Positions 6,897-64,000 of a stretch of DNA of 64,000 bases are shown here, one piece after another (position 1 is the stretch's first letter; every line of letters starts with the position of its first letter). Location of the stretch: contig JAKJXP020000138.1 of the NCBI GenBank assembly GCA_022225965.2, positions 28,196-92,195 on the forward strand, given 5' to 3'. A program made the position numbers and the translations under genes. Source of the stretch: Diatrype stigma (Eukaryota > Ascomycota > Sordariomycetes > Xylariales > Diatrypaceae). The notes below the pieces were generated by a model. That model saw only the letters and a list, made by a program, of their open reading frames with translations. It had not been told where the DNA came from and ran no database searches.

Positions 6897-9310
6897 TTAA
6901 TAGCCTTGGACCGTCGCCGCACTTCTCAACTTACGCTCCCAGAGTAGCAGTGAGCTGACGAGGACAACGACATTAAAGTACAACATTGTACGCATCTGCT
7001 CATTGTAACCATCGGCAAAAACCTCTCTTACTGTGTCTCGGGTCAAATCCGGTAAGGTGCTGATGTACTGGACAGATTCCGATATCTGACGAAGCTCCTC
7101 GGGCGTCAACAGGCCTTGCAGACGCGAGTTGACATAGTTGTTAAGAACGGTTGCACTAATACATATCAGCCAGGTGGCGCCAACGATAAAGCCCCATTGC
7201 GTTACCTACCTGATGGCAAGCCCGATTGTCCCGCCCAATACTCGTACCTGTGTTATTGCTCCCATGGCCACGCCTGAGACATCAAATCAGTGATCAATAC
7301 GTTGATTTCGACGAGAAGTTTTCCAGCTTACCCAAGTCTGCTCTGTCGACGACCATGGGCGTGAAGATAAGAAGTGACACCAAACCCATCCCGAAGCCGA
7401 AACCCATGATAACCTCGTACCCATACATCTCATTGCCACTGATGTAGTGCACAGAAATTGCTAGACCAAGACCGACCATCTGCAATGATGCGGCGAAGAG
7501 CAAGAGATAGAACGGGGGGAGCTTGAGCTTTGCAGCAAGCTGTCCTGCGACGGCGGTGGCCACAGGAGAGGCTAGCAATAACGGAAGCATCCGAATGCCC
7601 GCTTGGAAAGCCGAATGGCCGTCTACGGCTTGGAATCGCTGTGGAAGGTTGACGAGAACCGTCATGAAAGGTGGACCGGTAAAGAAAGCGATGCTGTACA
7701 GTGTCAGCCAATATTCTTTGATGATCAAGATAGCTGAAAGGAAAGGGATAATGGGGATAGAGAAACAGATAGGGGGAACTGACACGATGAGCGCCGCAAA
7801 GATCCGGTCCTTCATCAACCGCAGCGGAAAGACGGGCTCTTGACTGGAGCTTTCTCGGCCGACGAACCTCCCCCAAATGATAAACATGACGAAGAGAGCG
7901 GCGCCGATGATCAGACTGCTGAGGATGGCTGGACTGGCCCAGGCAAACCGGGAGCCGGCTTCTTCGAACGCGAAGACCACGAGGACGGAGGAACAGAGCA
8001 AGAGAGTGGCGCCCCCGATATCGAGACGGGCGAGAGAACCCCGCGACAGCTTAGCGCGAAGACCCGTCGTGCGTGTCGCCGACGAGGGGCGAGTTTCCGG
8101 GAAGTGGTTTGGCATAAAGAAGGCGATTAGCCCGGTAGCTATGACACCGGCTGGCGCACTGTTTGTCAAAGTTAGCCCAGCTTGCGATAATACTTTATGG
8201 CATTATTGCTTCACTGACTTAAGCAGAAAGACCCAACGCCAGGACGAGTGATCATTGATGATTCCACCCAGCACCGGACCGAGAACCGAGCTCATCACCA
8301 TAACCATGGATGTGACGGCAATGAGGTTGCCCCATTTCTCCGGCGGCACCATTTCTGGTTGGATGACCGTTACCACTACAACAACTGTAGTCAGTAAATG
8401 ATATTACGGACGTCATGATAGGCATAGGAGTTCTCTGTGAACCCCATCTCCTCTGAATTGCACCCCCAAGTGACTCTCAGCCATGGAAGTTGCTTACTGG
8501 CGTAGATCCCCGGCGCCTACACCTTGAAAGGCCCGGAATACGATACTGCACACACACATCAGTTGGGACAGCCCTAATAGGACACGGTGGACTTTACTCG
8601 GCTTACAGGTGAACCATGTTGGAGATGGAGCCATAGATGATGGAGAAGACGGTGAAGAGGGCGAGCGCCAGTAGCAGAAGCCATTTTCGCCCGAGGACGT
8701 CGCTGAACTTTGCATATATAATCAGAAATCCTACAAGGATATATCTAGTTACTACGCAGAACAGACCAAAGTAATCCCCGGTGAAAAGGGAGATCTCTTG
8801 ACTGACCAGTGTAAGTGATGAGATAGGAAGTGACAACCCAATCTCTCAGATCGAAGCCTCCAAGAGCATTCGATATGGATATAAGAGATGTGCTGACGAT
8901 GGTCGTCTCTAGAGTTGACAAGAGCAGCGATAGACATAGTCTGTGTTATATGGATGGCTATTAGTCTACATGAACGCACATGTACATATTGGGCATGCAG
9001 GGCTTTCTTTCAAGGAGAATGTATCGGGCTGGCGGAGACATAGAGGGGAGTGTCGCATACGCAAATGTCAGAGTATATATAATCTCCACCCTTTCAAGTA
9101 ATCTCTTGTTGGCTGGACAGTTTCTGCAGCGGGCACATATTCGGTCTTCCCCTGAATATCAGCACCGGTAGCAGCGCCGGTCGCAACACTGCCCCCCTGA
9201 TGCTCAGCCGGTGTGGCAGTCAATGTTGTTGCATGAGGGTCATGGTTCGTTGTAGTTTTAGCTGATGTGCTTATAGCATTGTCTTGGCTTGTCGGATTAC
9301 TATTGGCCAT
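6897..9310 (-). pseudogene. MFS drug:H+ antiporter (DHA2 type), interrupted by two 2-nt frameshifts
   Basis: Nine exons can be followed on the minus strand: 9310-9061, 8940-8807, 8730-8607, 8545-8498, 8384-8219, 8158-7784, 7693-7332, 7273-7210 and 7155-6897, all with GT-AG junctions. Together they give a 14-TM-like multidrug antiporter with a hydrophilic N-terminus, the LETTIVSTSL start of the first transmembrane block, LGRKW in the loop after TM2, and GPVLGG (motif C). Two places break the frame. In exon 1 a TATATATA run (9074-9081) is 2 nt too long, so the reading becomes RLYIL-stop instead of the expected RLYTLTFA. In exon 4 the G run of FQGVGAG (CCCC on the plus strand, 8508-8511) is 2 nt too short. 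Both are in simple runs, so sequencing error or true decay are both possible. The exons outside these points are clean. Family members export drugs or secondary metabolites. Confidence 0.75.
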
Positions 9311-35664: not shown

Positions 35665-38200
35665 GTTGGAAGTAATTGTAGCGAGGTCAGTTGATTTATT
35701 TATGATTGATTGGGGGGGGTTCGCTGTACAGTGGATGTCTTGGAAGCCGTGGCAGGATCCGGGAGGGAGGGTTGGGATATATACCCTGATGGGCGCATCG
35801 CGTGACGTCCGCAAAGCATCCTAGAAGATCCGAGAGACATCGTCAAACTGTATTTCCCCATTCGGCATCTGGTCTGATGATACGCCCTTCGCCGGTATTC
35901 GCTCAACTGGGTTGGCGCTTGATGTCAGAACGTAGTATCACGTCCTCGTCGTGTGTTGTGCGATGACATCCATTTGACGCGATTAGTTCTGCCGTGTCAT
36001 GCGACGTCATAAGTCGGGGCTTTCAATGTTCTAGAATCTTAGGAGGGCCGAAGCCCGAAGGTGTGGTTGTGCTCCGGCGCGGGGGTGGGCTGATCGGCGG
36101 CTGTTTACGTCGTACTACGGTACCAGTATAGCTTTGAGATCGTGCTGATGAACATCCGACCACCCCCTCCAACTCACCAGCATTTGACATACCGATTCAA
36201 TTTGATTTGTCACCATGCTTCGATTGCGGTACTCCGCCTTGGCTATAATAGCATGGTTATTCTCTGCAAGAGCAAGTGGAAGAAGTGATTGACTATATCC
36301 GCACTTGCCGATGCTTAATCATGTTGGTCACGGACGGAAAAGGCAATGGCTTAGGCTATGATACTAGATAGACTTAAGCACAAGTCTTGTAGGATCACAA
36401 TAGGGATCCCGGAAGTCGAGGAAAAGAGGTTGTACTCAGCTAAGTGCTTACAGCAATAATAGAAGGTAGATGGATTTACTAGGTCTATGATCGACGTGAC
36501 CGCCCCACAGTCTACTGAATATAGCATGGTTGTTTAAACTTCAAATGCTGGAATCGGAGAAAGAACAGTGCTTCCAACTCTACACAGCTTTCCAAGCTCA
36601 AGATTCTAGGTCTGGAAATGACAGTAATTACATGAAGGCAGCCAAGTCCAACTGAACGGTTGCTTCCAAACCTTATCAGAAAGGTATGTCTAGCTATAAG
36701 CCTAAGCATTCTAACATTGAAATGAAATTGCAAGGGCATGTCTGATGAGTATTGGCGTAGCGATGGCCCAGTCGGATGGTACCTATATGGACGAAACCTT
36801 TGGGGCCTAGAAGCATACTTTACGTAGGCCTTCTTCCGTCCCGCTAGTATATTCAGATAACGGCAATGATTCATAAAATTGAAACTTACGAGACTTAATA
36901 CGCTTGCTTAATGTGATAAGGGCTTGTAGGGCTTGGAACTTAGGCGCTGTTCTTGAATAAAAGCATACTTACAATTCTGGCCCGTGAGCACCTTGTCATT
37001 GAGCGTAATTGAACGGGCCGGAGTTTGTATGCTGAATCCCACTTTATCACGTAAAGAACTGACCAGAATTGATGTTTCCTGGTTCATTCTGTTCTCAAGC
37101 AACAAGCTGAATTATGCTGAAGCTAATAATAACGCCACTTGTAATATCGTACCACCTTGCAAAATCTTACGATACGCGTTGCTTATTTTCTTTTTCTTTC
37201 CTTTCTTTCTTTTTTGCAACTAATTGCGTCTTATATATAAGTATTATACTGGCTATAAATCGTGTTATTAACGTCGCTTATCTTTTTAAAGGTTTAAAAC
37301 ATATGCATTTAAAGACGTTATTATAACCTTTAATTATACGTTATTAAAAATGTATAAATTACGTAATTATATAAAGAATATATATATATAAAGCTATTAC
37401 GTATTACGTTACTTATAAATAAATAAACTACTTATATTTATTAATAAAAGCAAACCTTAAAACCTTAAAAAGCTATTAAATATAAGTAAGAATTTTTTTA
37501 ATAAAACGTTATAAATTTATTAAACCGAAGCGCTAAGGCGGAAATTAAAATTTAAGCTTATTAAAGGTAATTATAATTATAATTAATCTTAAAAACGCGG
37601 TAATTCTGCTTTATTAAATCTTTATTATTTTCTTATAAGTATATTTTTACTTTTATTTAAAAATAGCGCCTTATAAAACAAATTAGCTTATAATTTTATA
37701 TAGTTTTCAAAAGCGCATTAAAGAGTTAAGATTTAAAAAACGTTAAAGAAAATTTATAAATACGTATAAATACGTATTGTTTATTTTTAACTTTTACGGC
37801 TTTCGTTATTATATTTTTAATAATTATATTAAGTAAGAATATATTTTAATACATTTTATAACTAATAATAATTATAATTATTATTAACTTAAAATCCCGT
37901 TATATAATACTTAATTAAGGTTTTAATATCTTTATAAGCGTTATATATTATATATTATATCTTAAGTTATATTATTATTTTAATATTTATATTTATAAAC
38001 TTATATATATTTAACTAGTTATAAGATAATAATGTTTAATTAAACGATATACTTTTAATAAAAAAAGTTAATTCCCGATTAGTTGTTTCTAGTTATGCAA
38101 ACCTTGCACATGGTATTTCCGAGAAAACGCAGTTATTATTAGGATTTCCATATAAATAAGTAACTAGCCACCCAGATAGGAGAGCATTTACAGCATCTTC
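35665..38200. other. Intergenic border region with an AT-rich RIP-type island
   Basis: No supported gene. 35700-37160 is ordinary composition with short open frames of no family. From about 37170 to 38095 the base composition falls sharply to AT-rich, with TTATAA/TATTAA words and almost no CA/TG dinucleotides left, as expected of a RIP-mutated repeat. I could not assign the original element. Composition recovers abruptly near 38100. Confidence 0.6.
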
Positions 38201-39106
38201 ATGAAATTCATTGTTAAGAAACACAAAACAAAAAAACTCGAGCCCACCATCCCCGTATCACCATTTCAATACAACAATAACGGCAAAGACTATTAACGAT
38301 AAGGGCGCGCCCCCATCCTATGAGGATGCCACGAGCGACATACAAAACCATGACATCGCTGCGACTAAGGCCCAGGCGATATCCGGCCAAGCTGGAGATA
38401 AAGGGTCCTTTTTCGACAAGTGGCAAGCTGAAATGCAGGTCTGCTTTTACCCTGACCCCAAAAACAACTTTTTGGTACATAAGTAACCTTGGTACGGCCA
38501 AATGTTTGTCAAGTGCGATGACGTCCTACGTTTGATGCGTGAAGGATTCCATTGAACGACCGCCAATGTCTTGCACGAAAAAGGATACATTGAACCATAT
38601 GGAACCGGAAACATTCCGTATGTAGGACAGACCAAGTTCATTTCAGCCCGATTCTATTCCATTACAGATTTGCAACAGCTACCGCAGTGGCTTGTCCAAT
38701 TCCGTATTTATTTACTTACCGTAACTAGGTTGCGCAACATTAAATTGGGTGACCTGTTAATCGAAATGGTTCATGCTATGTGGATTAGGGATTTACAGGA
38801 AAACTTGATGTATTAGTTTCACGCGAGGCAGCCATAGGATAATTTCAATGCCATTTATGACAATATGCGTATGCAGGGATGGTGGCCATGGCCTTACAAG
38901 GAGGAGCAATTAGACTACAAGAGAGGGACGATGCTGGAATAACTTGTAATAGTTTGATAGTTGTCTGTTATATTCCAAACGGGGGCGGTCGGGGTGAAGG
39001 CGCATGGTTGAAGCGCGTAGCCATTCGTTTACGTTGGGCTTGTTGTCGCGATATAGGGGCTACAATAGGAGAGCTTGGATTACATAACCAGGTAATCGGC
39101 ACCTAG
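38201..39106 (+). pseudogene. Broken gene of a hydrophilic fungal protein, several stops and frameshifts
   Basis: From an ATG at 38201 (MKFIVKKHKTKKLEP) a possible intron leads to GAPPSYEDATSD and FFDKWQAEMQ; after a second likely intron the frame continues MFVKCDDVLRLMREGF, HEKGYIEPYG, QLPQWLVQFRIYLL, WIRDLQENLMY, then NMRMQGWWPWPYKEEQL. In-frame stops interrupt it near 38551, 38815, 38840 and 38942, and a frame change near 38990 is needed to reach the C-terminus WLKRVAIRLRWACCRDIGAT...GLHNQVIGT. Stops are mainly at Trp/Gln-type codons, consistent with RIP leaking from the adjacent island. The family is not known to me. A second copy of only the last about 120 bases lies inverted at 53770-53890. 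Confidence 0.6.
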
Positions 39107-39314: not shown

Positions 39315-39322
39315 TCTTGTTT
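39315..39322. repeat. Target-site duplication, left copy (TCTTGTTT)
   Basis: An 8-bp sequence directly before the left terminal inverted repeat, identical to 48229-48236 directly after the right one. Eight bases is the duplication length of hAT transposons. Confidence 0.75.
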
Positions 39323-40184
39323 TAGGGTTTGCCATAATTACCTATTCATTTGTTTTTTTTAAACCGTGGGTAACTATTATGGATTAATGGGTAACCATTA
39401 GGGCGCAATTTTTCATTATTGGTTAGTGCTATAAACCAATAATTACCTATTGGTTTATAGCATTAATTAATGGATATTTATTATTAATGGTTATTTATTA
39501 GTTATTGCTATAAATTAATGAATAATTATTTACGAATGGTTAATTATTTACAAATAGTTATTCGTATATATCGCATAGTTATAACGTATACGAAATTAAA
39601 TAAAATTAATTATGTTAGCTTATATTATAATAATGCGTATTAATTTACGTATTAATTACGATATATTTCGTTATATAACTGTTATAATCGATTAAATTTA
39701 GCAATTAAATAATTAAAATCTTATAATTATGTTTTTTTTCGTTTAAATCTATAAGAAACATAATATTTTAATTAATATTATCGTTTTTTTCGATACTTTT
39801 AATTAGGTTTAATTTAAGTAATAATGTATTTAATTATAAATCCGGGTTTATATAAGGGCTAAATATTACGGTCGACTTTGGTATTACGAGCAATATAATG
39901 GCTATATTTATGCCTTTTTGGCAAAAACGGCCCTTATTACCGATAATTTAGCCAATTATGATATTCGATTAATTTTTAGCATAATCAAGAAATAGGATTT
40001 TATTTTGTTTATTAAATTTTTTATTTCGAACTATATAATTCCAGCCGATTATTTTTTTAATTATTTCGGTAATAGTTAGAAAGTAAATAGCATTACGAAT
40101 AGGTGGATATAAATAACGTAACAAATATCGGTTTTAATGCCGGCGTTAATAATGCGTTAATTTATTACAAATATGGAACCAAAG

Positions 40185-40229
40185 ATTAATACGGGGATTA
40201 ATACGACGATTAATACGGGAATTAATACG
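40185..40229 (-). repeat. 12-nt periodic array, four units (minus orientation)
   Basis: ATTAATAC, the reverse complement of GTATTAAT, begins at 40185, 40197, 40209 and 40221, exactly every 12 nt. Part of the family of intron-like arrays in this element. Confidence 0.85.
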
Positions 40230-40559
40230 TAATATACCGGATTTTGGGGATTCGTTTTTTTAAAGCAGCATTAAGCTTAGAAAACTTTTTTTTCCATTCG
40301 TAAAGCTTTAAAAGATTTATTTACAATAAGAAATGCAAGAAATTAATTTTATTAGGCGTTAATTATGGCAATATATTCGGATATTATAAGGTTAATTTAA
40401 TTTTAATTAGTACCGCGTTTTATTTTTTATTGTTGCAGTATTTAGTTATTACTTTTTAAAGGAATTATAAAGAAACGTAAAATTAATGTTTAAAAAATTA
40501 TAACTTAAAAAAAAGCCCTTAAATAAAAAGTTGTAATGTTTTAATTTAAAACCGATAAC

Positions 40560-42670
40560 GGCTTAACGATATAATCTATATAAGATTAATATACGTATTA
40601 ATCGGCGTATTAATTATTTATATACCTTATATTATTAAATTGCGTATTTCTTATTTAGCTTTTTGGAATTAAGGTATTTCCGGAGACGAATTTATTAATA
40701 TGCAGCCTTAATAATTTGTTACATAAACTAATTACAAAATTAAATAAAGATATTGTTCGAATTTGCATTTATTAAGATATATTCGGATCGTAAAGTCTAA
40801 ATATTTAATTAGCTTATTTAATAAAAAAGCAATAAAATATATAATCGAATAAATACCTTTATAACGTTTTCGCGTAATATGGCAAATTCTGCGTTTCTTA
40901 ATTTTAAAGGCTAATTTGCTTCCAGTTTTTTTAAAAACAATCCAGTAACGTTATTTATAAATAAAATAATCCGATTAGGAATTATTATAATAATTTATCG
41001 TTTGCGGGTAATATCTTAATAAAGATGATAGTTTTTTTTTTCTTTATTTCATTTAACGGATTTCCAGTTTTCCTGGTTCGTAAATCGAACCGTAAGTACG
41101 ATTTTATATTTTTGGGCTATTTATAATGGATATTCGTTTTTTGCCTTTTTATAAAGAATTAATATACCGATTAATATATTAATAAATAATATTTATAAAT
41201 CGTTCTTAATTTACTGGTTAATAATTATTATTTGGCGTTGCATTTTATTATTATTTGCATTTAAATTGTTTTTTATTTATTTCTTTTAAATACGTCGTTG
41301 CTTGGCCTTTATAACAGCTTTATGCTTTTCGATTATTTTTTGCTTTTTGCTTAATTTGGCCGTACGTTTGCGCGCTTTTATAATATTAGGATTACTTAAT
41401 AATTCGTTATTAAATTTGCGTCGCTTAAATTAATTAACCGATAAAGGATCGGAATTATTTCGTTTTTATAAAGGCGCTATGTTGTTATAAAGCAAATTAA
41501 TACGCGGATTAATACGTAATGATTCGCCAAAAATATGAATACGAAAATATTTTCAAAATGCATTAAGCAAAGTAATAAATTTAATTAAGGCAATTAATGC
41601 AACCGTAAAAACCATAATATTAGGTAAAACTTATAAAGAAATAAGGTTTTTAAAAAAAACCTAAAAACCTTATTTTTATATTCGAAAAAAAGGAAACTTT
41701 TATTAAAATAAGTATTAATAAAATGCTTATAAATTGTTTTAATATTATAAATTAAAGATTAACGTATTATTGGCGGTATAGGAATCTTTAAAAATTTTTG
41801 TTATTAAAAAAAATAAATTGCGGTTATTACGAAACGAAACGCATTAGTATAAAATTAAAGTGGGTCCACCGGCTAAATTTCGGGTATTCATTTATTTCAT
41901 AAATACGTTTTAATATTTAAGGAATTAATTAATAACAAATAAAAATTAATAATTAATTATAAAAAATAATTTATATTTATTATTTTAAATAAATTTTTAA
42001 TAAAATAAAAATCCTTAGGTATAATCGTAATTTTTTTTGCATATATAATATATAATTAATTACATATAAATATTGAAATTAATCTTTTTTTTGTCGCTTT
42101 TTATAAAGCAGTTAGTGCTAATGCTTAAATACGAAATTGGATTTTTTTTGTATTTGTTATTATTTTTTTTATTAGTTTTTAAAAGAATAGCTTTAAAATA
42201 TAAAAATTAATTATACGTTAAAGCTTTTTAATTTCGTAAAAGGTAATAATTGGCATTTATTAAATCGTATTAATTAGCGTATTAATTATTTAAAACTTAT
42301 TATTTGGTTTAAAATAACGTCGACGCTATTAATTATTAAATTTAATATGGGCCTTGCGTTTAATAATTAAACCTTTTTTTGGTTTCGCTTTAGTATGCGT
42401 TTTATTGGGCCTATATTCGTTTATTTTATTGGATAATTCTCGATATTATTGGATGAAATGTAAAGTATAGGTTTTAATAGCGAATTTAGTAGCTTTCATT
42501 ATAAATAAATTATTTCTTTTATAGGTTTAGATATCGGCGTAAATATTTTGAATTTTTTAATCGTATGCATATTACCGAAATGAAATGATTATTAATTGAG
42601 ATTCGGATGTTTTTTCGATTATTTTTTCGTTTATTTGCGGTGGTATTTTTGGTTTAATAGCGGGCGGCAT
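40560..42670 (-). other. Unassigned coding traces on the minus strand of the element
   Basis: Reading the minus strand from an ATG at 42670 gives over 100 codons (opening MPPAIKPKIPPQINEKIIEK, later THTKAKPKKG) with only a few TAA stops, all possible former Gln codons. Further down, around 41430-41250, a strongly basic segment (IKARKRTAKLSKKQKIIEKH) and around 41080-40780 a segment with NQENWKSVK and LPYYAKTL behave the same way. GTATTAAT arrays in minus orientation near 41496 and 40185 would fit introns of minus-strand genes. Some stretches (for example 41560-41900) read better on the plus strand, so more than one gene may be present. I do not recognise any family. Confidence 0.35.
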
Positions 42671-42997
42671 TTTGAAATAAAGTATATAAAAAAAGGTTTA
42701 ATATATTGAAAATAAAAAATAACGCTTTAAATATATTACATTAAACGGAATTAATGTATTAATTTTATTTCGAATTAATAACATACGATTATATACGGAT
42801 AAATAAGCTTTATTTTTATAGGCAACATTTTTATAAGTATTTTTTTTATATTTATTTTATCGGTATAAAGGATAAAAAAAAAGAAAATGTTTAATTGGAT
42901 AATTCTTTATATTTTTTTTTATTTTCGAAGTTATTTTCGAAATTATTTTCGAAATTATTTAAAAAAAGCCTTATTAATAAGTTTATATTATAATATT

Positions 42998-45900
42998 ATG
43001 TTAGCAAATCCTAATAATAAATGCTTTTTTTAGGATATCGACGACTCATTTTTCGAACGAGGAAATAAAATGGATTAAAAACGGAATTCTTTAAACGAAT
43101 TTAAATCAAGCCCTTTTAAAAGAAATACAAGCTTATTATTCGGCCCCGAAATAAAACATATAATATTAAAACGTATTAGCATTTTCGATTTTATCGTTAA
43201 TATCTTTTGCGAATTAAATATTTCGAATAAAAAAGATATATTTTATAACGCCAAGGAAAAAGATAAATTTCGCATAATTGTTATGGATAGTTTATTTTTA
43301 TCGAATAATTCGGAACGAACCGGCCTTATATTAGACGTAATAAAAAATCCAATATATTATTAATATATTAAAGTTGTAAAGAATAAATTTTAAAAATAAT
43401 GGGTAACGATATTTAAATATAAGGCAACAAAGACAAAAAAAAACGAACGCATAAAGAAAATAAAGAAAGCAATTAAAACTGGTCGAAAAAAAGGCCGGGT
43501 TAAAAATATCGAATAAATATATTCGATGGATTGCATTTTTAGAACTAAATAGCGAGTTAATATATAAAAAAAATTTAACAAAGGAGCAACAGTTAAAAAA
43601 GGGCGGTTTATGGTTATATATAAGCAATGCCGTATTATTTTGAACCATTTTAAAAATGCTACGATAATTTTAAGTAATGGCATATTTTTTTTACGAAATT
43701 ATTAAGTATTAACGAAATATAAAAAGGCCATAAAAGCCGTTAAATAAATGGCGGCAAGCGATATATTAATATGTTTATTGCTAATAAATTCCGTATTAAT
43801 CCGCGTATTAATTATTATATATTAAAAATAAAATAATTTACGATTTAATAAAATATTATTAACCGAAAACCGTTTAATTCTAAATGTATGGATTTTTATA
43901 TGCTTATTATTTAATTGCATTATTAATTTTTATTTTAAGGCTTTTGTTAATTATTTGCATTTTGGCTTTTCGTTATTTTTGTTATATATATTACGAAGAC
44001 GTTATAATTAATATGTCGAGACGATCGTTAAAAAAAAGTTTAAGGATATTATTAAAGATTTTTATATTGGTATAACGCATAATATATAAATCAATTCCGG
44101 GCTTGCATAAAATTTTTAAGGTATATACGTATATTTCGTTAATAAAAAATGGAATTTTAAATACGTCTTTATCGACATATATTTATGCAATAATAAAGAA
44201 GCAAAATTAAGTATTAAAAAGATTTATGAAATATTGAATAAATACGATTTTGCCGTACGGTTTTAAATAATTACGGCAAACGGCGGGCCTAGTTTTTCGA
44301 TTAAGTACATGCGAAAGTTTTTAATTAAAGACCGTAAGCGATTAGGTATAAATTTTAAATAAATCGAAAACGTAAGCCATTTTTATTGCTTTTTTTATGT
44401 ATTATAAATAATTAATAAAAATATTTATAAAGGGCTTGGTATTAAATAAGCTAAAAGGTTTGTAAAAAATGCAGGGAAGGAAATAAAAAAAAACGAAAAC
44501 GGTAAGGTTAAAGTATTTGAGATTATTTTTAATAGCGTGGCTAATATTTTAAAAGGGATACGTATTTAATTTTATTTTGCGTATTAATTTGCGTATTAAT
44601 TTGCGTATTAATTTAAATTTTAAGTGCGATAAATAATAACGTATATTAACTTTAGTATTAAGCGTTAAAAGAAATTTACGGCTATCGAGCAAAAACTTAT
44701 AAATAATAAGTTTTTATAATTAAATTGTTATTTAAAGCTTATTTATAACGTCCGTATAAAATGGAATTTTATTATATTAATACTAATTCGGATATACGTT
44801 TTATGGATAGTAATTAAAAAGTACATATTAAAAGAATATTTGGAAAAGAAAATCAAAATTACGGAAGCGATATTACAAATTTTAGGTTATATTATTAATA
44901 TTATTAAAGTTTTTATTTACCTAATAAACCTATTCGGTTTTAGCAAAAAATGCAATATTAATTACGTATTCGAAGGTTATAAGTTGGTAATTTATTATTT
45001 AACCGTTTATAAGAATTATGTTACGGAAAAACTTAAAGCCGAAAGTTATTTAATGTAGTTAAAAAAAATTAATTATGTTTTCGATTTCGTTTTTTTTAAG
45101 TTAAAGAATTATCGATAAAAGGTTTTTATTAATAATAAGGAATATTTTATTATTATTATGCTTTTATATTTATTTAGCCGCAAAACAAATTTTAAGTACT
45201 TTAATAAATGGCAAAAATATTTCGGGAAAAAATTAAATAATGAATATATTAAAGCCGAAGCTATTCGTTATTTTAAGAAATGTTACGAACCGTATTATGT
45301 TAAATACGGTAACGAATTGGCCATTTTTAATTGTATCCAGTATGTCCGGCGACGAGATTAGCCGGGCGTAACGGAAATAATAACCGATTATTAATCGATA
45401 AGTTCTTAAAAGATACCTTTATAATTGCAATATTAATTTAAAGCTTATTAATATTATATAGCCATTTATATTTTTTTCCTTTTATATATTAAACGAAATG
45501 TTATTTTTAAAGCCGTCGGATTTTATTATTAATAAATATTTAAAAATGAATCAATTAATTTAAGGCTATTTTAAAATTAATACGTTAATTAATACGATTA
45601 AATTTAAAGCTTAATTAAATTGCTTTTTAATTTTAGGCAAAATTGAAACGTTTATTATTTGGTTTTGTTATATTTATCCGTAATGTTTTTAATATTTAAT
45701 TCGTTGTTATAATAATAAAACGGATATAAAGTTAGGTTTAATTAATATATTATTTTAATCGATTTTTAATTAATTCGGATGCGTTAAAAAATTTTTTTTT
45801 GGTTATTTTCTTTTTTCGCTGCGAAGTATTTACGTTTTTCGAAAATGTATTTTATAACGAAAGAAATAACGATAATAACGAAACTGGTATATTCCGGAAA

Positions 45901-46020
45901 AAACAGGAATTTAAAAACGCGTTTAAATTTTTATTTTCCGATATAACAGCGTTTTCGTTATTAATTCGAAATGGACTTAGTTTTTATATATCCGAATTTG
46001 GGCATGATTTTGGTTTTGGA
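42998..46020 (+). pseudogene. hAT-like transposase relic, many RIP stop codons
   Basis: From an ATG at 42998 the plus strand reads as a nearly continuous protein if TAA/TAG are taken as former Gln; no TGA occurs in the long first block (42998-43790). After a gap with two 12-nt units (43793-43812) come AFRYFCYIYYEDVI and SRRSLKKSLRILLK, in the place of the hAT LPF..F..L / SRRTL block. A further block (about 44150-44560) gives IYEILNKYDFAVRF, IITANGG and IENVSHFYCFFYVL, in the order of the hAT DN...N...RC.H.L block but with key acidic/His positions altered. After an array at 44579 the C-terminal part (44840-45360) has VFDFVFFKLKNYR, LLYLFSR, KYFNKWQKYF and YIKAEAIRYFKKCYEPYY, resembling the hAT hP.yk..yf...W block. 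Assignment rests on motif order and on the 8-bp duplication. Confidence 0.58.
44579..44612 (+). repeat. 12-nt periodic array, three units
   Basis: GTATTAAT begins at 44581, 44593 and 44605. It sits between two coding blocks of the transposase relic, where an intron would be. Confidence 0.85.
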
Positions 46021-46994
46021 TAAGCTTTTTTTGAATTCGTTTTAATTAAATAGGTTTATAATACAATCGAAGTATAAAAATCGAAAACCGTTGTTACTAA
46101 TAGGATTCGATTTGTTATATTTTCCGTTCGAAATGGAAATAAGCGAAAAAGAATAATAAAAATAACAACCCAAAATTAATCGGAGCCTAAAAAGAATGCT
46201 ATAATAAAAGCTAAACGAACGGCAATTTTGTTAATTTTTTAAAATTAATATATTTCTTATAATAATAATAATATTTTTTATGTATTTGTTATTTTTTTTT
46301 TATTATATTAATTAATTTAAATATAAAATAAATATTATAAATTAAATATTTAATAAATATTTAAGTTAAGTTTTAATAATAAAGATTTTAAATAAAGAGT
46401 TTATTATATAATTAAAATATAAAAAATATAATATATATTATTTTAATTATATTTTAATTATATAAAAATTTATTTATTTTATTTATTTATAAAATATAAA
46501 GAAATGTAATATTAAAATTAACATAAGTATTATAAAAAGTATTTATTATTATATAATTTAAAAAGTATTTTAAAATAAAAGTATTTTAAAATAATTTAAA
46601 TATTAAAGAATATTATAAATTTTAAATTTTTATTATTTTTTAAAGCTAATATTATAAGTATAATATATATATATATATATATATTTCGATATAGGATTTT
46701 ATAACCAGTCCATTATAGCTATTATTAATCGTTAATAGCCGCGTTTTATATTTTATAACTAGCGGACTTATTAAAATGTATATTAACGTAATTTTGGTTA
46801 TACGTATCGTAATTACTTCCTTTTTTAACCTTTAATTCCGCCAAGATTTTTCCTTCGTTGCGTTTTCGTAAAATCCCCGATTTAGGTTAAAATTAATTAA
46901 TACTTTTCGTTTTAATTGCTTATTTAGCCGATTTCCGGATTTTGCGGCCATTATGACGCGTACGAGACAAATCGGTATGTTATTGCTTTTTTTA

Positions 46995-47028
46995 CGTATT
47001 AATTAACGTATTAATTGATGTATTAATT
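46995..47028 (+). repeat. 12-nt periodic array, three units, in first intron-like gap of the H3-like gene
   Basis: GTATTAAT begins at 46996, 47008 and 47020, between H3 blocks 1 and 2. Confidence 0.85.
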
Positions 47029-47413
47029 GCTTAATAACTAAGCCAAGTACGGCTAAAGGCAAAAGCAAAGGCATAGGTAAAGGTAAAGGCAAAGGTAAGG
47101 CTAAAGGCAAGGCAATATTTAAAAAGCCAGGTATAAAACGCCGCCGCTTTAAGCTTAGTAATAAGTATTAAATTATTTTCGTATTTTATTTATTAAAAAA
47201 ATATTAATTTAATATAGCCGTTACATTTCGAGAGATTCGTTTTAAGCAAAAGAAAGTTTATGAAAAGCCGGCGATTTTAAAAACGCCTTTTTAATAATTA
47301 ATTCGAAAGATTGCTTAAAATTTGCATCCAAATATTCGAATATAAGCTATTACTTTAAAAGCGTTATAAAAAGCTATAAAAAAAATTATTATTATTTTTA
47401 TAATTAATAAATT

Positions 47414-47485
47414 ACGTATTAATCCGTATATTAATTCGCGTATTAATCCGCGTATTAATTTGCGTATTAATTCGCGTATTAATCG
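47414..47485 (+). repeat. 12-nt periodic array, six units, in last intron-like gap of the H3-like gene
   Basis: GTATTAAT begins at 47416, 47440, 47452, 47464 and 47476; a variant GTATATTAAT at 47426 fills the missing register. The array starts with GTATTA and is followed by TTATAG right before the NLC block, as donor and acceptor of an intron. Confidence 0.88.
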
Positions 47486-48228
47486 CTTATAGCTATTAAT
47501 TTATGTATTATTTACGATAAGCGTATTATTATTTAAGCGAAAAATATATAATTAGCTTATTAAATTCGCCGAATTATGAATCCTATTAATTTAAATTATC
47601 TCGGCCTTGCGGCAAAACCTACGAATTCTTTCGTAGTTATGAATAAACGAAACAAACAAAATGTTAAGGCTAAAAATGTTATACGTATTCGGATAATTAA
47701 AAAGCTACATAATAAGGAAAACCAACAGTTTTTTAAGCGTCGGGCGAAAAAAATATCCGCAAGCCAAAACGTTAAGCCCAAAAAGCCTATGATAGCTTTA
47801 AAAAATAAAAAGCTTAAAGAAAATAAAAAACGTTATATTTAAAAGGAATTACGTATTTTCGGTAAAGCTTTCGGTAAAGCTTAATATGCAGATTAATATA
47901 TAAATTAATACGCGCATTAAGCATTACGTTTAGATTTTAGCTTAATTGCGATGTTTTAATTTTATTTTATGAAACGTTTTATTATACGAATAAAATAAAT
48001 TCGTATATATAAATTATTTAAATAAATAATTATTAGTTATTTATTTATTAAATTATTAATTAATAAGTAATTAATGGTTATTATTTTAATTAATAAATAA
48101 TTAGTGATTAATTATTTTAACCAATAAGTAACCGGCTAATAGCTTATACCATTAGTGGTTATTTATTAATTGGGATAACCATAACGGTTTTTTAGTGGTT
48201 ACCCATTGGTTACCTACGGCAAGGCGTA

Positions 48229-48236
48229 TCTTGTTT
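48229..48236. repeat. Target-site duplication, right copy (TCTTGTTT)
   Basis: Identical to 39315-39322 and directly adjacent to the right inverted end of the element. Confidence 0.75.
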
Positions 48237-62244: not shown

Positions 62245-62756
62245 GATAAACGAAGACGAAGACCTGATTCGGCTCGTATAAGAGCTTTAGGAAAGAACTA
62301 TGACACGATGGATTCAATAGTAATCAGTGCACGGAGATAATAATGAGCTCATAGCCAAGGGGTATATCTCCGTAGTTATGTCCATATGATCCTATCAGTT
62401 AGCGCTAAACCAGGTTCGGCAATACGAGCCCAGTTAGGAATTACAAGTGTCCGAGTTATGCGCAGGGTGTTACGTAACGCAACCTGTGTAAGGTTCTGTT
62501 AGCGGGAGCATTCGCCGCGGCGAGCCATGTACCTAATCAGCAGCACAGCCCACTTTGATGACACCGTTACATAACGCTTTTCTTTTCTTGGGTGCGATTT
62601 ACACCTATACAACTGCTATTGTAACGGTATGGGTCGCCGTTGCACCTCATGGAGTAAGATGGTGGGTTTTCGAGCCGACAACATTCCACTTTTGGTGGTT
62701 AGCCCTTATGTTATATTACGGAACTAACCTTGTTGTTTTGTTCTCTTTATAGCATA
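62245..62756. other. Region upstream of the Zn2Cys6 gene
   Basis: Likely promoter of the regulator gene. A short plus-strand frame (62558-62752) encodes about 64 residues with two hydrophobic segments; it ends at the border of the AT-rich island and may be a fragment of a lost membrane protein. No family is recognised. Confidence 0.4.
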
Positions 62757-64000
62757 TATGTCGTTCTTATTTTTAAATAGGTTCTTTTAGTTCTTAGGTT
62801 ATAATAATTATATTAACGTATATTTATATTATATATTTCCTTGTTTTATAACGTAATAATTTATAGCCTTTATATAATATATTCGTTTTTAAACGAAATA
62901 AATAATTCTCTTATTTTATGTGTTTATAATTTATAATTGCTTAATAATTTATTCTTATAATTCGAATTTTCATTAAAATACCTTTAAGTAATAACTATAT
63001 TAAATATAATACTAAAGGCATAATTTTATCGAATAAAACGCCGGTATTAAAAAATATCGTAATTATTAACGTTATTTCTTATTTATAAATAAATATATTG
63101 CCTTAAATTTTTAAAGCACTTTAAAAACATATCGTTATAATAATACCTTAATTTATTACTAGGATTTTTTAAAATAAATATATCGGATTTTCCTTTTTTT
63201 AAAAAAAATGTCTTAAAATGCTTTTAAATTTTCGTAATAAATAAAAACTTATAAAAATTATTAATTATGTTTTAAAATTACGACTTTAAAATAATTACCG
63301 ATTTAATAAAAAGCCGTGAAATAATAATAACCCTTAATATGTAAAATTTTAAATCGATTAATTATAAATTTAATAAAAGGTTATAAAGTAATAATAATTC
63401 TTAAACTTAAAAAATAGGATTTTAAAAGTTAATAACTTAAACGAAATAAAGAAATATTCGTTTTTTTATAATTAAAAGAATACGTTTTAATAAGTAAGTT
63501 ATATTAAAAATAATAATAAAATTATAAATTATTTTCATAATTTATAATAAATGGTTTTTACGTTTTAGTAATTCTTTACGTTAATAATAAAGAAATTCTT
63601 AAATTTTAGCCATTTTAGCTTTATCTTTTATTAGCGATAAAAACGACAAGTTTTATTTTTTAAGATTATTATAATATTATAAATTATTTCGATATGAAAT
63701 TGCCGGTAAAAATGTTAAGAAATAGCATGAAATATAATCGCCTTATTTTTATAAGTATTAAGTATTAATAAGTACGTACGTAAATTAAAGAAAGCAAATA
63801 ATAATCCGAAATAAAACGGTTATGTTTTAAGTTATTTAAAATAAAAAGGCTTTATTTAAAGAAATATAAATAAAAGCTCTTACTTATATAAAGCCTTATT
63901 GGCTTACGTAATATAACGCTACTTAAACGTTAAATATAATTATTATTTACTTTCTTTTCTTTTACGATGTAATCGCGAATTATAATGGCTATTTATTAAA
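62757..64000. other. AT-rich RIP-type island at the window edge
   Basis: Composition changes sharply at about 62757 to a sequence dominated by TTATAA, TATTAA and AATAAT words, like the 37.2-38.1 kb and 39.3-48.2 kb islands. No open frame is supported and no terminal repeat is seen; the unit continues past the window end. Confidence 0.6.

What the first reader, a model, noticed from the sequence alone, without database searches (positions are those of the whole stretch)
46953..47842. Histone H3-like gene carried inside a RIP-mutated hAT-like transposon
Seen in the sequence: four blocks align in order with the whole H3 chain (MTRTRQI start, Lys/Gly tail, VTFREIRFKQ, LIRKIA, NLHPNIRI, ALxKA, NLC...KR...LA). 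In the best block, four of the five in-frame stops fall where H3 has Gln (PFQ, IAQ, RFQ, ALQ) and one on the Arg of PFQR, so most are explained by C-to-T change of CAA/CAG. After the H3 end the frame stays open for about 88 further Lys/Arg-rich residues, which canonical H3 lacks. It lies between the transposase relic and the right end of an element bounded by an 8-bp duplication. Inference: the transposon carried its own H3 variant, perhaps to alter chromatin at the element or to counter silencing. I know of no described hAT element with such cargo, but I could not search.
Basis: partly seen in the sequence, partly recalled or inferred. Interest (0 to 1): 0.93.

Follow-up and report, generated by a model that had tools for sequence, protein, structure and literature searches.

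The report
Fungal transposon carrying two histone genes
A mutation-killed copy of a fungal jumping gene carries two unusual histone H3 genes, and an undamaged copy elsewhere in the same genome shows what they looked like; such elements are known from other fungi, but this form, with two distinct histones and its own repeated DNA motif, may be a kit for managing chromatin.

Summary
The H3-like relic is real (PDB histone H3, E=8.9e-11 with stops as X). It lies in a RIP-mutated hAT element, window 39323-48228, flanked by TCTTGTTT on both sides. The genome (Diatrype stigma by protein names) holds about 11-12 copies; one, on C37, is intact. Aligned to it, the window copy shows 1885 RIP-direction changes and 27 other substitutions over 8820 positions. 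That extension is acidic; its Lys/Arg-richness in the window is a RIP product. GTACTAATC occurs 28 times (0.10 expected) in 12 tandem arrays of 12-bp period, none in coding exons; 9 of 12 introns hold one. New here: an intact, intron-bearing, two-variant form, its orphan gene and motif arrays. Best reading: resident histone variants that alter the element's chromatin; the function is inferred, not shown.

The parts
39315..39322 (.). left target site duplication TCTTGTTT
48229..48236 (.). right target site duplication TCTTGTTT
39323..48228 (+). whole hAT element, 8906 bp, RIP-mutated (GC 0.224; 1885 of 3857 aligned C/G positions changed in the RIP direction against the intact C37 copy, 27 other substitutions)
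39323..39346 (+). left terminal inverted repeat (24 bases compared: 18 identical to C37, 6 RIP changes)
48205..48228 (-). right terminal inverted repeat (24 bases compared: 23 identical, 1 RIP change)
39771..41480 (-). relic of the orphan gene (gene A; intact form 493 aa in 5 exons)
   Evidence: tblastn with the intact protein; model
41963..42670 (-). relic of the second histone H3 variant, H3B (intact form 220 aa, 2 exons, long N-terminal tail)
42998..46239 (+). relic of the hAT transposase (intact form 1004 aa, 5 exons)
46953..46974 (+). H3L exon 1 (MARTRQTA start in the intact copy)
47043..47160 (+). H3L exon 2 (Lys/Gly-rich tail); ends approximate, splice sites changed by RIP
47218..47406 (+). 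H3L exon 3 (histone fold, first part); 39 of 39 substitutions against C37 are C to T or G to A
47493..47884 (+). H3L exon 4 (end of histone fold plus 104-aa C-terminal extension; acidic when intact)
40185..40228 (-). motif array (GTAYTAAT, 12-bp period, 4 units) in the place of gene A intron 4
46996..47027 (+). motif array (3 units) in H3L intron 1
47416..47483 (+). motif array (5 matched units and one degenerate) in H3L intron 3; C37 has 3 units there
44581..44612 (+). motif array (3 units) in transposase intron 2; further pairs at 39637, 40595, 41496, 42267, 43793 and 45576

Best explanation
Shown: the window holds a RIP-inactivated copy of an 8.9-kb hAT transposon whose intact form in the same genome encodes four predicted proteins: a hAT transposase, an orphan protein, and two diverged histone H3 variants (H3L with an acidic C-terminal extension, H3B with a long N-terminal tail). 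Inferred: the two variants are long-resident genes of the element and not recent or decayed copies of host H3. They are made, enter nucleosomes on or near the element, and, because H3L has Arg in place of Lys4 and no ARKS motif in its tail, they weaken the marking that silences the element, so that it can be expressed and move. The tandem 12-bp motif in its introns and spacers may be the address to which an element protein is directed.
For: Intact element with all four reading frames open; H3L and H3B score 99 and 104 bits as core histones. All 7 full-length RIP copies read carry both variants, orphan gene and transposase in one order. H3L against host H3: 60% identical in the core while third codon positions differ at 64%, first at 31%, second at 19%, and 33 of 57 shared residues use another codon: old divergence under constraint. 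H3L and H3B share an intron site after KPG that my models of host H3 and host CENP-A lack. Tail changes read. Motif arrays. Analogy: VANC of Arabidopsis VANDAL elements binds tandem noncoding motifs and removes silencing (PMC5735166 passages; PMC10398659 abstract).
Against: No expression, protein or chromatin data. One intact copy only, in a short-read assembly; gene models are predicted from splice signals. The copies are too alike before RIP to test selection among them. Ten or more copies were still hit by RIP, so any protection is incomplete. Published authors read H3 in such hATs as captured housekeeping copies (PMC6710886) and suggested drift (PMC3538342). H3B has no recognisable H3 tail that would show the same loss of marks.
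Confidence: 0.45

Rival explanations
1. Transduplication: the hAT captured host H3 sequence by chance and carries it as a passenger without function, as proposed for Pyrenophora and Pseudocercospora.
For: Published reading of the related cases (PMC3538342; PMC6710886). H3L is nearer to host H3 (57 of 95 core residues) than to H3B (52 of 95) or host CENP-A (51 of 95).
Against: Both variants are open and intact with introns at sites other than those of host H3; codon divergence from host H3 is high while the fold is kept; tail and extension are remodelled, and two variants travel together in all 7 full-length RIP copies read.
Confidence: 0.3
2. The histone-fold proteins are architectural or regulatory parts of transposition itself (transpososome assembly, copy control) and do not act on silencing.
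For: They are encoded between the same ends as the transposase in every full-length copy read; the histone fold is a general DNA-bending and dimerising fold (recalled).
Against: No binding data; the retained H3 core, including the LCAIH.KR and KD segments of the H3-H3 contact region (alignment; role recalled), suggests nucleosomes.
Confidence: 0.15
3. The 12-bp arrays are ordinary: branch-point-like intron sequence (TACTAAT) or transposase binding sites, unrelated to chromatin.
For: 9 of 12 arrays lie in introns and 6 of these 9 carry TACTAAT in sense orientation.
Against: 3 intron arrays are antisense, 3 arrays lie outside introns, 3 of 12 introns have none. The 12-bp tandem period is not needed for splicing. 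Other repeats of the GGTTACCCA type sit at the ends (by eye).
Confidence: 0.35

Closest known systems
H3L-bearing hAT of Pyrenophora tritici-repentis (Manning et al. 2013, PMC3538342; transduplication section part 1 and passages read)
   Same: hAT with TIRs that carries an H3-like gene with a changed tail, plus a further gene of unknown function; many copies.
   Different: About 5.6 kb with one H3-like gene; copies hardly touched by RIP; another class of fungi. Sequences could not be compared here; whether the histones share an origin is open.
H3-bearing hATs of Pseudocercospora, Cercospora and Sphaerulina (Dhillon et al. 2019, PMC6710886; parts 1-4 of 7 and passages read)
   Same: About 9.5 kb, 8-bp TSD, one or two H3-like copies per element, RIP-mutated, AT-rich.
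   Different: There read as an intronless captured H3 transcript, with no other domains or repeats found and no intact copy. Here intact, introns present, two clearly different variants, orphan gene, tandem motif. Sequences not compared (supplements not open to me).
Repeat R25 of Stagonospora nodorum (Hane and Oliver 2010, PMC3017866; passages read)
   Same: RIP-mutated repeat with a region similar to histone H3 after deRIP, and weak DNA transposon similarity.
   Different: Classed as a presumably endogenous gene region; no element structure given.
VANDAL elements with VANC (PMC5735166 passages; PMC10398659 abstract)
   Same: DNA transposon with extra genes and a short motif in tandem arrays, including introns, varying in number between copies.
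   Different: Plant element of another superfamily; VANC is not a histone; binding and anti-silencing are shown there and untested here. An analogy only.

Membership tests
hAT superfamily transposon | 8-bp target site duplication with terminal inverted repeats | tested here: met
   TCTTGTTT on both sides of the window copy; identical TSDs in 6 of 8 copies with both ends seen (C38 and C87 halves counted as one copy), one mismatch in C15, none matching in C34
hAT superfamily transposon | transposase with hAT dimerisation domain and Hermes-like core | tested here: met
   intact copy: PF05699 27.2 bits against cut-off 21.4; Hermes E=4e-7
histone H3 | H3 histone fold by profile and sequence | tested here: met
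   PF00125 99 bits (H3L) and 103.9 bits (H3B); PDB H3 chains first
canonical histone H3 | tail with Lys4, ARKS9 and ARKS27; about 136 aa | tested here: not met
   H3L 244 aa with Arg at 4, no ARKS in the tail; H3B 220 aa with another tail
CENP-A | closer to CENP-A than to H3; longer loop 1 | tested here: inconclusive
   H3L is nearer host H3. H3B is equally far from both (47 of 95, 47 of 96) and its loop 1 is one residue longer than H3's, host CENP-A's three. The 60 listed of 176 PDB matches of H3B are H3, a list dominated by H3
Pyrenophora / Pseudocercospora H3-bearing hAT family | sequence similarity of transposase, ends and H3-like genes | not testable with these tools
   the published sequences are in figures and supplements that I could not open
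VANC-type anti-silencing system | element protein binds the noncoding tandem motif and removes silent marks | not testable with these tools
   only the motif arrays are shown

The most novel reading that the evidence does not exclude
The element is a self-contained chromatin kit: it encodes two private H3 variants that escape Lys4/Lys9/Lys27 marking and an orphan protein that recognises the tandem 12-bp motif placed in each of its genes, so that element DNA is packed in element-made nucleosomes and kept out of heterochromatin. This would be a histone-based counterpart of the VANC system, and the H3-bearing hATs of several fungal groups would be one old strategy and not accidental gene captures.
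Probability: 0.25. Interest if true: 0.92.

Novelty: new variant of a known kind. Interest (0 to 1): 0.62.

Why it matters
Whether a transposon can carry histone variants to manage its own chromatin is open; the published cases were read as captured copies of a housekeeping gene. A complete element with two variants, introns, transposase and motif arrays, beside RIP-killed sisters that are otherwise nearly identical, makes this testable: expression, nucleosome entry and motif binding can each be assayed with one natural sequence. It also corrects a reading trap: RIP turns an acidic tail into a basic one.

Tried and rejected
H3B as a CENP-A: not supported, not excluded. Lys/Arg-rich extension as a feature: rejected, a RIP product. 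Selection test between copies by transversions per codon position: uninformative, since copies were almost identical before RIP; its gene A counts and the L042 H3L count contain misaligned stretches and are not used. Homologue searches with H3L and H3B were swamped by canonical H3 (7976 and 7753 matches, only 120 listed each); in the H3L list only P0001, from Diatrype stigma, scores above the canonical H3s. The orphan gene search returned one protein, P0170 of Diatrype stigma; that search reaches only relatives sharing exact 5-residue words. Structure model of P0170 without alignment: mean pLDDT 46, not used. The one motif pair outside C37, on C153, lies in sequence where I saw no element gene (first 5000 bases, by eye). 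The left end was not found for the copies on C105, C151 and C2. The 38.2-38.9 kb neighbour reading has no Pfam match. Papers: PMC6710886 parts 1-4 of 7 and passages; PMC3538342 transduplication section part 1 of 2 and passages; PMC3017866, PMC5735166, PMC12217926 passages; PMC10398659 abstract and section list. Other papers: listing only. That the new features are not in print rests in an open-access library.

Full report
Where it is. The window is C138:28196-92195 of G000 (48.98 Mb, 224 contigs). The top hit of the H3L search, 100% identical over 63% of the query, is named from Diatrype stigma and lies on a contig of 424048 bases, the length of C37. A short-read assembly of that species is published (PMC12217926, passages).

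The observation. The H3-like relic is real: with stops as X it matches PDB H3 at E=8.9e-11. RIP explains its stops: of 54 aligned stops in the window's H3L, H3B and transposase, 38 lie opposite Gln codons, 11 opposite TGG, 4 opposite CGA and 1 opposite CGG of the intact copy. The frame continues to 47884. The extension is acidic in the intact copy (26 D/E, 15 K/R in 104 aa) and basic in the window (3 D/E, 30 K/R) because G-to-A change turns Glu into Lys.

The element and its copies. Window 39323-48228, TSD TCTTGTTT. Searches with H3L exon 3, H3L exon 4 plus extension, a transposase exon and the H3B tail each matched 11 contigs (the tool calls such counts lower bounds). Together these are 13 contigs; the halves on C38 and C87 share the TSD TCTGGAAA, and C105 and C169 may be halves of one more (not shown), so 11-12 copies. 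Of 8 copies with both ends seen, 6 have identical TSDs; C15 differs in one base and C34 does not match. All 7 full-length RIP copies read (window, L031, L032, L035, L036, L037, L040) have gene A, H3B, transposase and H3L in one order; L042 holds all but H3L, and L033, L034 and L041 reach only H3L.

The intact copy. L038 335-9179, TSD GCAGAGCC (by eye). Spliced models: H3L 244 aa, 4 exons; H3B 220 aa, 2 exons; gene A 493 aa, 5 exons; transposase 1004 aa, 5 exons. Public annotation has a 153-aa protein covering part of the histone fold and the whole extension, and a 420-aa form of gene A. Aligned to C37, four RIP copies differ at 1794-1885 C/G positions in the RIP direction and by 20-30 other substitutions over 8773-8821 positions, gaps not counted. 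The spread was thus recent, and a natural unmutated sequence is at hand. The outer 60 bases are less mutated (0-8 of 27 and 1-4 of 31 C/G positions) than the gene A and transposase interior, about half.

The histones. Both keep the core histone fold. H3L has Arg in place of Lys4 and no ARKS in its tail; an ARKT occurs in the extension (by eye). In the core H3L is 60% identical to host H3, 55% to H3B, 54% to host CENP-A; H3B is 49% identical to host H3 and to host CENP-A alike, so its kinship is unresolved. H3L against host H3 differs at 64% of third, 31% of first and 19% of second codon positions. H3L and H3B share an intron site after KPG; my models of host H3 and host CENP-A have introns elsewhere. 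This argues for an old origin under constraint and against a recent transcript capture.

The motif. GTACTAATC occurs 28 times in L038, 0.10 expected, 0 of 200 shuffles reaching 28, in 12 arrays of 2-4 units at 12-bp spacing. 28 of 28 lie outside coding exons, which fill 5895 of 8845 bases; 9 of 12 introns have an array, 3 have none. The exact spaced pair occurs 16 times in the genome, 15 of them in the C37 element, 1 on C153; the reversed control pattern 0. Allowing the RIP form, the 7 full-length copies tested (C37, window, C34, C27, C15, C3, C74) have 8-16 spaced pairs each, against 0 in 100 shuffles of each. Array size varies: H3L intron 1 has 2 units in C37 and 3 in the window; H3L intron 3 has 3 in C37, and 5 matched plus one degenerate in the window.

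Prior art and verdict. H3-bearing hATs are published in Pyrenophora (5.6 kb, one H3L and an unknown ORF; PMC3538342) and in Pseudocercospora, Cercospora and Sphaerulina (about 9.5 kb, one or two H3-like copies, RIP; PMC6710886), with an H3-like repeat in Stagonospora (PMC3017866). This one is in another class of fungi (recalled). Its intact two-variant, intron-bearing form, orphan gene and motif arrays I found described in none. What it does is inferred; the nearest functional analogy is VANC of Arabidopsis (PMC5735166 passages, PMC10398659 abstract).

Noticed in passing
window 38200-38900: Broken reading of about 230 aa, less AT-rich than its surroundings, with a few stops; no Pfam match.
   Followed up: partly
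window 37200-38060 and about 62500-64000: Further AT-rich tracts (GC 0.22 and 0.175 in the bins 37001-38000 and 63001-64000), probably other RIP-mutated repeats.
   Followed up: no
L038 335-9179 (C37): One copy untouched by RIP beside heavily mutated sisters; how it escaped (recent arrival, crossing, or protection) is unexplained.
   Followed up: no
element ends in the window, L031, L032 and L037: Terminal 60 bases are much less RIP-mutated than the gene A and transposase interior.
   Followed up: partly
L038 near 340-540 and 8930-9150: Repeats of the type GGTTACCCACTGGTTA near both ends, like subterminal transposase binding sites (recalled).
   Followed up: no
L031 (C34) ends: Both ends present but flanking 8-mers differ (ATAGACTT / GGCCATAG), as after recombination between copies.
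   Followed up: no
H3L extension, L038 679-990 (-): An ARKT motif in the C-terminal extension, resembling the ARKS sites that the tail lacks.
   Followed up: no
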